Positions 18,270 through 20,704 of a DNA stretch of 64,000 nucleotides are shown piece by piece. The stretch's first letter is position 1; each line of letters begins with the position of its first letter. The position numbers and the translations under genes are program-made. The stretch lies in the NCBI GenBank assembly GCA_021496505.1, contig CP053031.1, forward strand, positions 1,240,001-1,304,000, read 5' to 3'. The notes under the pieces were generated by a model. The model did no database searches, had not been told where the DNA came from, and was given only the letters and a program-made list of their open reading frames with translations. The DNA is from Thermoleophilia bacterium SCSIO 60948 (GTDB lineage Bacteria; Actinomycetota; Thermoleophilia; Solirubrobacterales; 70-9).

Positions 18270-19412
18270 ATGAGCACCCGGTTCGCAAAGAAGCTCGCCG
18301 AGATCCCCGGCTATCAGGCCGGCGTGCCGCAGGGCAAAGCGCCGGAGGCGGTGAAGGGCGAGGACATCGCCCAGCTCGCCTCGAACGAGTCGCCGCACGG
18401 CCCGCACCCGCAGGTCGTCGAGGCGATCGCGCGCGCGGCGAGCGCCTCGAACCGCTATCCCGACCCGGCCGCGACCCTGCTGCGCCGCCGCCTGTCCGAG
18501 CGCTTCGAGATCCCGAGCGCCGAGATCGCGGTCTCGAATGGGTCCTGCGAGATCCTCCTCGCCGCCTCGCTCGCTCTCTGCGAGCCCGGCGACGAGATCG
18601 TCTACGCCTGGCCTTCCTTCTCGATCTACCCGTACATGGCGCCGATGTCGGGCGCCCGAGAGGTCCGCGTCGCGCTGACCGGCGACCACGAGCACGACCT
18701 CGACGCGATGCTCACCGAGATAACCGCGGCGACGCAGATCGTCGTCGTATGCAATCCGAACAACCCGACCTCGACCTACATCCCGGTCGAGCGGATCGCC
18801 GCCTTCCTCGCCGAGGTGCCGGATTACGTCACGGTGATCCTCGACGAGGCCTACATCGAGTTCCAGACCGGCGACGACCCCGACGCCTCGCTCGATCTGC
18901 GCAAGGACTTCCCGAACCTCGTCTGCCTGCGGACGTTCTCCAAGTGCTACGGGCTCGCGGGCCTTCGCGTCGGCTACGCGCTCTGCTCGCCTGAGTTCCG
19001 AAACGCCGTCGATGCCGTCCGCCAGCCGTTCAGCGTCAACGCCGTCGCCCAGGCGGCGGCCGCCGAGGCGATCCGCCACCAGGACGACGCCTTCGACCGC
19101 GTCGAGCAGACGATCATCGAGCGCGTGCGGGTCGAGGAGGGCGTGCGCGCGCTCGGCCTGGCGACCGCGGACTCACAGGCGAACTTCTCCTGGATCGACC
19201 TCGGGGAGAACGACGAGGCCGAGATCGTCAACGGCCTCAAGGAGCGTGGCGTAGTCGTCCGCGCCGGCACGCCGCTCGGCGGCCCCGGCCACATCCGCGT
19301 CTCCTACGGCTCGCGCGAGCACGACGATCGCTTCCTCGCGGGCATGCGCGAACTCGTCAGGCCCGCCGAGCAGGCGCCGGGCGGATTGCGCGGCTTGTTC
19401 GGCCGTCGCTGA
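18270..19412 (+). CDS. Histidinol-phosphate/aromatic aminotransferase (HisC-type)
   Basis: PLP fold-type I transaminase of the HisC family. 380 aa. LASNESPHGPHPQVVEAI, CNPNNPTSTYIP, DEAYIEF and FSKCYGLAGLRVGYAL (PLP lysine in FSK) are all present. Family members transaminate histidinol phosphate or phenylpyruvate/4-hydroxyphenylpyruvate. Because it lies between chorismate mutase and DAHP synthase/prephenate dehydrogenase, a Phe/Tyr transaminase role is likelier. The two activities cannot be told apart by motif alone. GACAAT (18255-18260) lies 9 nt before the ATG. Confidence 0.9.
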   Translation: MSTRFAKKLAEIPGYQAGVPQGKAPEAVKGEDIAQLASNESPHGPHPQVVEAIARAASASNRYPDPAATLLRRRLSERFEIPSAEIAVSNGSCEILLAASLALCEPGDEIVYAWPSFSIYPYMAPMSGAREVRVALTGDHEHDLDAMLTEITAATQIVVVCNPNNPTSTYIPVERIAAFLAEVPDYVTVILDEAYIEFQTGDDPDASLDLRKDFPNLVCLRTFSKCYGLAGLRVGYALCSPEFRNAVDAVRQPFSVNAVAQAAAAEAIRHQDDAFDRVEQTIIERVRVEEGVRALGLATADSQANFSWIDLGENDEAEIVNGLKERGVVVRAGTPLGGPGHIRVSYGSREHDDRFLAGMRELVRPAEQAPGGLRGLFGRR

Positions 19413-19425
19413 GCCTGCTACAAAT
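19395..19425 (+). promoter_or_regulatory. Candidate promoter for the aro leader peptide / DAHP synthase unit
   Basis: TTGTTC (19395-19400), an 18-nt spacer and TACAAAT (19419-19425). It overlaps the end of the aminotransferase gene. The hexamer ends 10 nt before the leader-peptide ATG, so the leader ORF would itself be translated leaderlessly. Confidence 0.6.
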
Positions 19426-19434
19426 ACTTCCTGC

Positions 19435-19530
19435 ATGCGGCGCCTTCGTACGACCCACCTGACGCCCGCGGCGCACGGCGCCGGGCTCGGTCGTGCCCTT
19501 GGGTCGTACTGGTATTGGCGATTTAGCTAG
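19435..19530 (+). CDS. Aromatic amino acid leader peptide (putative attenuator peptide)
   Basis: A 31-codon ORF ending in TAG at 19528-19530, 148 nt before the DAHP synthase start. Its last seven residues are Y-W-Y-W-R-F-S, so all three aromatic amino acids are encoded just before the stop. The start is ATG 19435, 10 nt after the -10 hexamer. The Tyr25 codon is part of the 3' arm of a perfect inverted repeat (19448-19457 with 19500-19509). This is the classical layout of ribosome-mediated attenuation, in which stalling at scarce charged tRNA alters RNA folding. The function is inferred; the ORF and codon cluster are seen directly. Confidence 0.82.
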   Translation: MRRLRTTHLTPAAHGAGLGRALGSYWYWRFS

Positions 19531-19614
19531 GCGTCCGGCAGGGCGAGCTCGAAAGCCGTCCATCAGCACAGGAATCATTCGCCGGGCGCCGTAGAGCGGT
19601 CCTACCTAGGCCGC
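19448..19614 (+). promoter_or_regulatory. Putative transcription/translation attenuator of the DAHP synthase gene
   Basis: Three nested or successive foldable segments. GTACGACCCA (19448-19457) pairs perfectly with TGGGTCGTAC (19500-19509), enclosing a smaller hairpin (GGCGC 19470-19474 / GCGCC 19478-19482). GGCGTCCGGC (19530-19539, starting at the last base of the leader stop codon) pairs with GCCGGGCGCC (19581-19590), including one G-U. GCGGTC (19596-19601) pairs with GGCCGC (19609-19614), followed by CAGCTTTCTC. Which pairings exclude each other, and whether output is termination or access to the ribosome site at 19666-19670, cannot be settled by eye. Confidence 0.65.
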
Positions 19615-19678
19615 ACAGCTTTCTCACCGACACCGCACCGCTCATCCGAGCGCAGAGAACTTCCGAAGGACTGACCAG

Positions 19679-20704
19679 ATGATGATCGTGATGAAAGAGG
19701 GGGCGAGCGACGAGCAGATCGCCTACGTCGCCGAACGGGTCGAGTCCGTCGGCTGCTCCGCCCACGTCTCCAAGGGGGAGCGACTGACGGTGATCGGCGC
19801 GCTCGGAGGCCCCGAGAAGGTCGCCTCGCTGCGGCTCGACGGAGCGCCGGGGGTCGATCACCTCGTGCCGATCACGAAGCCCTACAAGCTCGCCTCGACG
19901 CAGTTCCGCAAGGGTGAGCGAAGCGTCATCGAGATCGATGGCCGCAAGGTCGGTGGCGACCACTTCGGCCTGATCGCCGGGCCGTGCACGGTCGAGAGCC
20001 GCGAGCAGACGCTCGACGTCGCACGCGCCGTCTCCGAGTCGGGCGTGACGATGTTCCGCGGCGGCGCCTACAAGCCGCGCACCTCGCCGTACTCGTTCCA
20101 CGGCCTCGGCGTCGAGGGACTGCGCCTGCTCGCCGAGGCGAAGGCCGAGACCGGCCTGCCGGTCGTCACCGAGCTGATGGACGCGCGCGACGTCGCCGAC
20201 GTCGTCGAGGTCGCCGACGTGATCCAGATCGGCGCGCGCAACATGCAGAACTACACGCTGCTCTCCGAGGTCGGTCGGACCGGCAAGCCGGTGCTGCTCA
20301 AGCGCGGCCTCGCGGCGACGTTGGAGGAGCTGCTGATGGCGTCGGAGTACGTCCTCAAGGAGGACAACCCGAACGTGATGCTCTGCGAGCGCGGCATCCG
20401 CACCTACGAGACCGCCTACCGGTTCACGCTCGACCTGATGGCGATCCCGGCGCTCAAGGAGATGACCCACCTGCCGGTGATCGTCGATCCGAGCCATGCC
20501 GCGGGCCGGCGCGACTGGGTCGAGCCGATGTCGCTCGCGGCCGCCGCCGCCGGCGCCGACGGGATCATCGTCGAGACCCACAACGACCCGGACAACGCGA
20601 TCTGCGACGGACCGCAGCAGATCCGAAGCGACGAGTTCGCCGCCTACGCCCAGCGCGTCCGCAGCGTCGTCGAGGTCGCGGGCAAGGAGCTCTCGGCCGC
20701 CTAG
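19679..20704 (+). CDS. aroF: 3-deoxy-7-phosphoheptulonate (DAHP) synthase, type I-beta
   Basis: First committed step of the shikimate pathway (PEP + erythrose-4-P to DAHP). 341 aa. The N-terminal ~75 residues form the ferredoxin-like regulatory domain of the I-beta class (MMIVMKEGASDEQIAYV, then the VPITKPYKLAS linker). The TIM-barrel holds GPCTVESREQ, FRGGAYKPRTSPYSF, IQIGARNMQNY and VIVDPSHAAGRRDWVEP. AAGGA (19666-19670) precedes the ATG, so unlike its neighbours it has a long leader, which contains the aromatic leader peptide. An adjacent in-frame ATG (19682) is an alternative start. Confidence 0.96.
   Translation: MMIVMKEGASDEQIAYVAERVESVGCSAHVSKGERLTVIGALGGPEKVASLRLDGAPGVDHLVPITKPYKLASTQFRKGERSVIEIDGRKVGGDHFGLIAGPCTVESREQTLDVARAVSESGVTMFRGGAYKPRTSPYSFHGLGVEGLRLLAEAKAETGLPVVTELMDARDVADVVEVADVIQIGARNMQNYTLLSEVGRTGKPVLLKRGLAATLEELLMASEYVLKEDNPNVMLCERGIRTYETAYRFTLDLMAIPALKEMTHLPVIVDPSHAAGRRDWVEPMSLAAAAAGADGIIVETHNDPDNAICDGPQQIRSDEFAAYAQRVRSVVEVAGKELSAA

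What the first reader, a model, noticed from the sequence alone, without database searches (positions are those of the whole stretch)
19395..19681. Aromatic leader peptide and attenuator-like RNA in front of DAHP synthase
A 31-codon ORF (19435-19530) ends in Tyr-Trp-Tyr-Trp-Arg-Phe-Ser, placing codons for all three aromatic amino acids directly before its stop. The Tyr25 codon is in the 3' arm of a perfect 10-bp inverted repeat, and a second 10-bp RNA stem starts at the last base of the stop codon. The downstream gene is the entry enzyme of aromatic synthesis and, unlike nearly every other unit head here, has a long leader and a Shine-Dalgarno. Established attenuators of this layout exist for trp and phe operons in other bacteria; control of a type I-beta DAHP synthase by a mixed Tyr/Trp/Phe peptide in this lineage is, as far as I know, undescribed. 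The leader ORF would itself be translated leaderlessly.
Basis: partly seen in the sequence, partly recalled or inferred. Interest (0 to 1): 0.88.

Follow-up and report, generated by a model that had tools for sequence, protein, structure and literature searches.

The report
Aromatic-sensing leader before DAHP synthase
Across most of an order of actinobacteria, the gene for the first enzyme of aromatic amino-acid synthesis follows a tiny translated gene packed with tyrosine, tryptophan and phenylalanine codons and ending in a nearly unchanging 18-letter sequence; it probably lets the ribosome report amino-acid shortage, but how the signal reaches the enzyme gene is open.

Summary
The 31-codon ORF (19435-19530) belongs to a leader found in most of the sampled order (Solirubrobacterales by named relatives). 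Of the 30 best DAHPS loci collected by protein similarity (window included), 26 carry it. Of 140 motif hits examined, 135 have a DAHP synthase directly downstream (99 type I-beta, 36 type I-alpha); the other five look like chance. The leader thus stays when the enzyme is exchanged. In the leader frame 46% of the last four codons before the terminal Trp are aromatic (2-6.5% in other frames), with no stop in 2520 codons. In 62 of 126 loci an extended -10 box lies just before a start codon, so translation is leaderless or nearly so. TGG-CGA-TTT-ANC-TAG-GCG (19516-19533) is almost invariant, and a covarying stem starts on the stop codon's last base.

No U tract follows the stem and no conserved antiterminator was shown, so 'classical attenuator' is not established. 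Ribosome-stalling control of DAHPS is the best reading; a Phe/Tyr leader before aroF is already known in Corynebacterium glutamicum. New are the order-level three-amino-acid leader, the stop-codon-embedded motif, and its persistence across enzyme replacement. Nothing was tested by experiment.

The parts
19416..19424 (+). extended -10 promoter box TGCTACAAA of the leader transcript; predicted start about 19431, so a 5' UTR of only about 3-4 nt
   Evidence: TGNTANAA 2-12 nt before an in-frame start in 62 of 126 loci against a mean of 0.65 in shuffles, gaps 7-10 nt in 54 of the 62; seen by eye. Consensus only, no transcript data.
19435..19530 (+). leader ORF, 31 codons, ending SYWYWRFS*
   Evidence: frame conservation and aromatic enrichment in 126 loci
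19448..19509 (+). hairpin inside the leader ORF, arms 19448-19457 and 19500-19509, perfect 10 bp
   Evidence: comparable stems are only moderately enriched in orthologues
19507..19524 (+). aromatic codons TAC TGG TAT TGG (CGA) TTT, the likely sensing codons
   Evidence: TAT is 49% of Tyr codons in leaders against 2.7% in DAHPS genes
19516..19533 (+). near-invariant motif TGGCGATTTANCTAGGCG spanning Trp, Arg, Phe, last codon, UAG stop and 3 nt beyond
   Evidence: exact 16-nt pattern in 0 of 382 phylum genomes outside the order
19530..19590 (+). stop-adjacent stem P1 (arms 19530-19539 and 19581-19590) enclosing a variable internal region
   Evidence: covariation C-G / U-A / U-G at two adjacent pairs
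19665..19670 (+). Shine-Dalgarno GAAGGA of the DAHPS gene
   Evidence: GAAAGG is the top 6-mer before I-beta genes, 46 of 82 against 2.0 expected
19679..20704 (+). DAHP synthase, type I-beta with N-terminal ferredoxin-like domain (regulated gene)

Best explanation
A cis-acting translated leader couples the supply of charged Tyr-, Trp- and Phe-tRNA to expression of the DAHP synthase gene. SHOWN by comparison: the ORF is under selection as a reading frame, its last codons are aromatic, it stays in front of DAHPS genes of two types, in about half of the loci a promoter box lies so close that it must be translated leaderlessly or nearly so, and its end is a near-invariant sequence abutting a covarying stem P1. 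INFERRED: when aromatics are plentiful the ribosome runs through UGG-CGA-UUU to UAG and leaves, P1 forms, and less DAHPS mRNA or protein is made (probably premature termination without a U tract, perhaps Rho-dependent). When an aromatic is short the ribosome waits in the Tyr/Trp/Phe cluster, where rare wobble-read codons (UAU, UUU) heighten the effect; the end of the ORF and the 5' arm of P1 are then covered, or refolded with the UGGC...GCUA segment, P1 is delayed, and DAHPS is expressed. Which structure is OFF, and whether the output is termination, translation or mRNA decay, is not shown.
For: Leader frame: aromatic fraction 0.458 / 0.212 / 0.085 in codons 1-4 / 5-8 / 9-12 before the terminal Trp, background 0.03-0.05; other frames at most 0.065; stops 0 against 22 and 36 of 2520. 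All three aromatics, terminal Trp and Phe counted, in 125 of 126 leaders. 135 of 140 examined motif hits have DAHPS next; types I-alpha and I-beta both occur behind the leader within genera g13 and g36, and g18 holds I-beta and I-alpha. Codon choice TAT 49% of Tyr and TTT 15% of Phe in leaders against 2.7% and 2.6% in the same loci's DAHPS genes. Promoter box 62 of 126 against 0.65. P1 covariation: pair 17 has 83 of 87 paired, permutation maximum 76; pair 16 has 86 of 89, maximum 84; 28 double-change cells against 9.8 shuffled, 0 of 500. Precedent: aroR-aroF of C. glutamicum.
Against: No intrinsic terminator: T run of 4 or more in 1 of 126, and none predicted in the window stretch. P1 is absent or shorter than 7 bp in 9 of 126, including all three g3 genomes and L126 (G017), which keep the motif. 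Covariation rests on few pairs: the three pairs inward of 16 and 17 do not exceed their permutations, and two of five measures were reached by 50 and 48 of 500 shuffles. The stalling model by itself does not explain why CGA, UUU and UAG are so fixed. A TANNNT-like box just before DAHPS in part of the loci (54 of 82 against 24.8 expected; GTAGA[GT]T 14 against 0.3) could start transcripts that skip the leader. The leader is dispensable: 4 of 30 loci collected by protein lack the motif, and 11 of 15 selected order loci looked at show no leader at all. No expression data.
Confidence: 0.8

Rival explanations
1. The invariant GCGAUUUANNUAGGCG is a recognition site for a trans factor (an RNA-binding protein, an antitermination factor or an endonuclease) that can bind only when a ribosome stalled upstream leaves it exposed; the ORF gates access to it.
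For: Nucleotide-level constraint beyond codon need: CGA is 5% of Arg and TTT 2.6% of Phe codons in the same loci's DAHPS genes, and TAG ends 33 of 120 DAHPS genes, yet in the 126 DAHPS-linked leaders CGA and TTT occur 126 times and TAG 125 times (the rows were partly chosen by this core). AUUUA has a mean pairing probability of only 0.16-0.28 and no conserved complement.
Against: No factor identified; no second exact copy of the motif in the window's genome. L013 (G104) has lost AUUUA but keeps GGCGA and CTAGGCGTCC.
Confidence: 0.35
2. Nascent-chain arrest: the peptide end W-R-F-x with UAG stalls the ribosome at termination, possibly sensing free aromatic amino acid as TnaC senses Trp (recalled), and the stalled ribosome covers the 5' arm of P1.
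For: Arg and Phe are unchanged in 126 of 126 and UAG in 125 of 126 DAHPS-linked leaders. In G003, where DAHPS is gone from the place, TTT has become TTC while W-R-F is kept.
Against: The last residue is S, T, I, R or M, and Trp is replaced in 5 of 126. Fixed synonymous positions are not explained by a peptide.
Confidence: 0.15
3. The leader transcript is a separate short RNA and DAHPS is made mainly from a second promoter just upstream of its Shine-Dalgarno; leader transcription modulates that promoter.
For: TANNNT-like boxes enriched before DAHPS.
Against: I see no such box in the window itself; the motif directly precedes DAHPS in 135 of 140 examined hits, which favours control in cis through one transcript.
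Confidence: 0.12
4. The motif is a DNA operator or promoter part that happens to lie in an ORF.
For: Strong nucleotide conservation.
Against: It is not palindromic, it lies in a fixed frame at the end of an aromatic-rich ORF in the 126 loci, and it ends in a covarying RNA stem.
Confidence: 0.04
5. Chance short ORF and chance inverted repeats in GC-rich DNA.
For: Short ORFs are abundant in this window.
Against: The comparative results.
Confidence: 0.005

Closest known systems
aroR leader / aroF attenuator of Corynebacterium glutamicum (Neshat et al. 2014; not read, seen only as described in passages of PMC4046766 and PMC11802643)
   Same: Short leader with aromatic codons (Phe-Tyr-Phe) in front of a DAHP synthase gene in an actinobacterium; ribosome stalling under Phe limitation is reported to raise expression.
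   Different: The leader here carries Tyr, Trp and Phe codons and a near-invariant WRF-x-UAG-GCG end with a stop-adjacent stem; it precedes both I-alpha and I-beta enzymes. Homology to aroR was not tested.
Classical ribosome-mediated attenuators (trp, phe operons)
   Same: Leader ORF with codons for the pathway's products next to RNA stems.
   Different: No U-tract terminator, no demonstrated antiterminator, and a near-invariant sequence overlapping the stop codon.
LEU element of actinobacterial leuA (Seliverstov et al. 2005, PMC1262725; parts 1 and 2 of 3 read)
   Same: Conserved leader peptide with product codons and a conserved RNA structure of unknown mode; the authors propose a protein binding site.
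   Different: The LEU element is a pseudoknot whose base stem pairs the Leu codons with the Shine-Dalgarno box; such pairing was not searched for systematically here.
Leaderless cysteine-rich uORFs of mycobacteria (PMC4633059, passages; Canestrari et al. 2020 known only from a reference entry in PMC13236596)
   Same: Leaderless translated short ORF upstream of biosynthetic genes with product codons clustered at its end.
   Different: Different amino acid; no comparable invariant nucleotide motif is mentioned in the passages seen.
Leader peptides of Streptomyces lividans (PMC8079986, passages)
   Same: Leaderless leader peptides, several without a clear Rho-independent terminator.
   Different: The eight leaders listed are for Leu, Trp, Ala, Ile, Met and Thr genes; none precedes DAHPS.

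Membership tests
ribosome-mediated transcription attenuator | translated leader ORF with codons for the regulated pathway's product | tested here: met
   (comparative evidence, no ribosome data)
ribosome-mediated transcription attenuator | intrinsic terminator: GC-rich hairpin followed by a U tract | tested here: not met
   conserved hairpin yes; T run of 4 or more in 1 of 126; none found in the window stretch
ribosome-mediated transcription attenuator | mutually exclusive antiterminator and terminator helices | tested here: inconclusive
   counted outward from the pair 0/9, a UGG...CUA hairpin has 7 or 8 contiguous pairs and overlaps P1 in 48 of 126, 4-6 in 72 and at most 2 in 6; no compensatory changes
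ribosome-mediated transcription attenuator | expression responds to charging of the cognate tRNAs | not testable with these tools
   needs a reporter or RNA-seq under starvation
aroR-type leader of C. glutamicum aroF | leader with aromatic codons directly upstream of a DAHPS gene | tested here: met
   135 of 140 examined motif hits
aroR-type leader of C. glutamicum aroF | common descent or shared sequence with aroR | not tested
   the aroR sequence was not fetched; the exact 16-nt pattern occurs in 0 of 382 phylum genomes outside the order
[quoted passage not shown]
   no systematic search for this pairing
known Rfam RNA family (riboswitch, T-box, leader) | match above gathering score | tested here: not met
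   0 matches in the window; best weak match ncS037 24.9 bits against cut-off 112
arrest peptide acting at a stop codon | ribosome stalls at a fixed codon because of the peptide sequence | not testable with these tools
   needs toeprinting; conservation of R-F-x-stop is compatible

The most novel reading that the evidence does not exclude
The 18-nt TGGCGATTTANCTAGGCG is a new kind of control element: an RNA signal built into the last codons and the UAG stop of a leaderless, all-three-aromatics leader ORF, read by a trans factor or by the terminating ribosome only according to where the ribosome waits. It replaces the terminator/antiterminator pair of classical attenuation and is portable between DAHP synthases of different families.
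Probability: 0.35. Interest if true: 0.82.

Novelty: new variant of a known kind. Interest (0 to 1): 0.64.

Why it matters
DAHP synthase sets the flow into all aromatic amino acids, and the best-known layer of its control is allosteric feedback on the enzyme (established knowledge). Here most of a bacterial order keeps one translated sensor for all three products, and keeps it when the enzyme behind it is exchanged for another family, which points to control at the level of the locus rather than the protein. A near-invariant sequence across a stop codon in an otherwise fast-changing leader is unusual and easy to test by single synonymous changes. It bears on how attenuation works in GC-rich bacteria that lack U-tract terminators and translate without leaders.

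Tried and rejected
Antiterminator partner for the invariant motif: reverse complements of its 6-8-mers downstream were at most weakly above shuffles (GGCGAT 10 against 3.7 loci; nothing for the AUUUA part); upstream likewise weak (CTGGCG 17 against 8.6, GGCGAT 13 against 5.5). Hairpin UGGC-GAUUUA-GCUA: suggested by RNAalifold and by single folds, but its inner pair fails in 38 of 126 and no pair shows compensatory change; kept only as a possibility. Programmed frameshifting: one shifted frame stops within the motif in more than half of the loci, the other ends at scattered distances, so no conserved fused product. Other copies in the window's genome: one exact site and four with two mismatches, not followed; the pattern read backwards gave 3. 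Rfam: the ncS037 match is far below its cut-off, and the passages on ncS37 in PMC5688073 do not link it to DAHPS. Other aromatic leaders in the same genome: no short ORF with 3 or more aromatics among its last 12 codons in the stretches scanned before trpE and the prephenate dehydratase gene. Class outgroups: in 20 DAHPS upstream regions from other orders nothing came closer to the motif than 4 substitutions; short ORFs with 3 aromatics in the last 12 codons occur in three of them (L265, L267, L272), which I take as chance. Covariance-model search of 199 class genomes at E <= 0.01: 41 of 53 order genomes (some of them sources of the model) and 5 of 146 others matched, the latter at E 0.0013-0.0097; four of these (G392, G602, G674, G701) match only from model position 26 or 27 on, that is the stem part, and G589 over the full length; not followed. 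A weak second match in the window's genome (E 0.008) was not followed either. No match is not absence: G078 has a leader by eye. A first, site-anchored covariation count was ambiguous because 52 of 107 loci had several possible sites; it was replaced by a leave-one-out count.

Caveats of counting. One search matched 150 of 201 order genomes; only the 30 best-scoring loci, one of them the window, were laid out at once, so the sample that is free of choice by motif (26 of 30) leans to close relatives. Misses there: L013 (keeps a diverged end), L015, L025, L027. One search examined 151 loci (these 30, further loci fetched mostly because of the motif, and named loci L039-L062): 136 had the core with at most one mismatch, so its conservation in them is partly by construction. 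The other 11 misses are named loci (one of them, L054, has no upstream sequence). Named loci L063-L115, mostly of other phyla, were not scanned, except L064 (none). Four further hits that I had left out (L140 exact, L139, L146 and L148 with one mismatch) have neither DAHPS nor aromatic clusters, which with L187 makes 5 of 140 hits without DAHPS. By my count 27 listed one-mismatch hits and 3 exact hits (G119, G147, G194), and its unlisted part, were not fetched, so '165 of 201 genomes' there includes chance hits; the pattern read backwards hit 20 of 201 by my count of the table. Of 15 order loci looked at because the motif was missing or altered, 4 show a leader (L013, L258, L259, L260) and 11 do not. 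136 rows became 127 after removing rows with identical context and 126 after dropping L187. Where a locus had several hits of equal mismatch, the one with more aromatic codons was taken. Rows are related species and not independent. 'DAHPS next' means a BLASTP match to the window protein or the L126 protein in an ORF starting within 600 nt. The no-U-tract count includes the 9 loci without a good helix.

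Full report
WHAT IS IN THE WINDOW. The window is part of a 3.42-Mb single-contig genome; the nearest named relatives are Solirubrobacterales/Thermoleophilia assemblies. Around the finding lie an aminotransferase of the histidinol-phosphate transaminase kind (18270-19412), the leader, DAHP synthase (19679-20704) and prephenate dehydrogenase (20757 on). The DAHPS carries PF00793 and the ferredoxin-like domain PF18152 and scores above the cut-off of TIGR01361; calling this type I-beta is established knowledge, not a tool result.

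THE LEADER IS REAL. I collected DAHPS relatives by protein search in the order (150 of 201 genomes matched) and in named genomes. Among the 30 best-scoring loci, window included, 26 contain GCGATTTNNNTAGGC with no mismatch upstream of DAHPS. A pattern search of the order then found the 16-mer with at most one mismatch in 165 of 201 genomes and 47 of 51 genera (this includes chance one-mismatch hits, and the pattern read backwards hits 20 of 201 by my count). The exact 16-mer occurs in 10 of 14 order genomes and in 0 of 382 other genomes of the phylum, 24 of them from the same class. Across 126 distinct loci the frame that ends at the motif's stop is open for the 20 codons before the terminal Trp (0 stops of 2520; 22 and 36 in the other frames), and aromatic codons rise from a background of 3-5% to 8.5%, 21% and 46% in the codon blocks 9-12, 5-8 and 1-4 before the terminal Trp. 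All three aromatics, terminal Trp and Phe counted, are present in 125 of 126. Tyr is coded TAT in 49% of cases in the leaders but 2.7% in the DAHPS genes of the same loci; Phe is TTT in 15% against 2.6%. Rare, wobble-read codons are thus favoured in the sensor.

IT FOLLOWS THE FUNCTION, NOT THE GENE FAMILY. Of 136 motif loci, 135 have a DAHPS next: 99 match the window's I-beta protein best and 36 match a 375-aa protein of G017 that is TIGR00034 (aroFGH, type I-alpha) by profile. Without duplicate rows these are 90 and 36 of 127. The exception L187 and four hits I had first left out (L139, L140, L146, L148) have neither DAHPS nor aromatic clusters, so 135 of 140 examined hits are DAHPS-linked and the rest look like chance. 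Both DAHPS kinds occur in genera g13 and g36. G010, of genus g18 (other members have I-beta), and G018 have type I-alpha behind the leader. Some I-beta proteins lack the N-terminal ferredoxin-like domain (L124, L128). In G003 no DAHPS lies between a drifted copy of the leader (GGCGATTCGTCTAGGCG) and a gene that by its translation is prephenate dehydrogenase.

TRANSLATION START. TGNTANAA lies 2-12 nt before an in-frame start codon in 62 of 126 loci (mean 0.65 in shuffles), with gaps of 7-10 nt in 54 of the 62. In the window it is TGCTACAAA at 19416-19424, 10 nt before ATG. With the usual 6-7 nt from a -10 box to the start (established knowledge) the 5' UTR would be 0-4 nt.

THE INVARIANT END. 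Of the 18 positions of TGGCGATTTANCTAGGCG, ten (G C G A, T T, A G G C) are the same in 127 of 127 rows, seven in 120-126, and N is G in 89, T in 24, C in 14. Many rows were found by this core, so the statement free of that bias is the 26 of 30 above. In the 126 DAHPS-linked rows CGA and TTT occur 126 times, TAG 125 times (CAG in L216) and TGG 121 times. CGA makes up 5% of Arg and TTT 2.6% of Phe codons in the DAHPS genes, and 33 of 120 DAHPS genes end in TAG, so the choice is a nucleotide-level or codon-level constraint, not a peptide-level one alone. The AUUUA has a mean pairing probability of 0.16-0.28 and no conserved complement. One protein-collected locus, L013, has lost AUUUA and keeps the rest.

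THE STEM. From the last base of the stop codon a helix of at least 7 bp with a downstream arm exists in 117 of 126 loci, although helices of that length also arise in about a fifth of shuffles; the decisive evidence is covariation. Leaving the tested pair out when placing the arm, pair 17 is U-A 40, C-G 36, U-G 7 with 83 of 87 paired (permutation maximum 76), and pair 16 is C-G 45, U-G 29, U-A 12 with 86 of 89 (maximum 84); pair 21 just exceeds its permutations, pairs 18, 19, 20 and 22 do not, and 12-15 hardly vary. On a 44-row alignment 95% of cells pair and there are 28 double changes against 9.8 in shuffles (0 of 500), while the number of pairs with a double change (4) and of pair types (13) were reached by 50 and 48 of 500 shuffles. 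These 44 rows were every second one of 87 chosen for a helix of at least 9 bp, so the percentage is biased upward. In genus g38 the stem encloses further helices with some double changes. There is no U tract. The leader ORF is C-rich over G (0.41 against 0.27) and so is the spacer (0.37 against 0.29), unlike the DAHPS gene (0.33 against 0.36), which would suit Rho but does not prove it.

MECHANISM. The position of the aromatic codons right before the stem makes ribosome stalling the natural sensor. Two ways of output fit: a stalled ribosome delays P1, or the UGGC...GCUA segment refolds against P1. The second has 7 or 8 contiguous pairs in 48 of 126 loci but 4-6 in 72 and at most 2 in 6. I cannot choose, and the constancy of CGAUUUA is not explained by either; hence the rival of a recognition site.

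KNOWN AND NEW. A Phe-Tyr-Phe leader and attenuation at aroF are known in C. glutamicum (passages of PMC4046766, PMC3890552, PMC11802643). Seliverstov et al. 2005 (PMC1262725, parts 1 and 2 of 3) report trp leaders but no conserved structures before phenylalanine or tyrosine operons in the actinobacteria then used (no Solirubrobacterales in their list), and leaders without terminators. My searches for DAHPS leaders listed no paper on Thermoleophilia; the library holds only openly licensed papers. I rate this a new variant of a known kind. The element was found only within the order as far as searched (with five weak exceptions) and is missing in several lineages within it.

Noticed in passing
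L293 (G003:C172:1300-3800), motif 426-443: No DAHPS lies between the leader and a prephenate dehydrogenase-like gene; the leader's motif has drifted (TTT to TTC, last codon GTC) although the frame and W-R-F are kept.
   Followed up: partly
about -40 to -23 before the DAHPS start in part of the loci, e.g. L017, L183, L186: A TANNNT-like box (often GTAGAGT or GTAGATT) is enriched just upstream of DAHPS and may be a second promoter; I see none in the window.
   Followed up: partly
L216 (G173:C7:10451-12466), motif core from 501: In this genome the leader's TAG reads CAG (GCGATTTAGCCAGGCG), removing the stop while the rest of the motif is intact; sequencing error or true variant not known.
   Followed up: no
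L013 (G104): Diverged leader end TTGGCGAACCGTCTAGGCGTCC: AUUUA lost, stop and stem arm kept.
   Followed up: no
alignment A1, columns 40-49: Genus g38 has a conserved CGTGAGCGGG inside the region enclosed by P1.
   Followed up: no
L124, L128, L149, L150: Several I-beta DAHPS behind the leader lack the N-terminal ferredoxin-like domain (Pfam for L124 and L128; alignment start only for L149 and L150), so there the leader may be the main remaining control.
   Followed up: partly
L140 (G092:C205), core at 1501: An exact chance copy of the 16-nt pattern without aromatic codons or DAHPS, showing that the pattern alone is not proof of a leader.
   Followed up: yes
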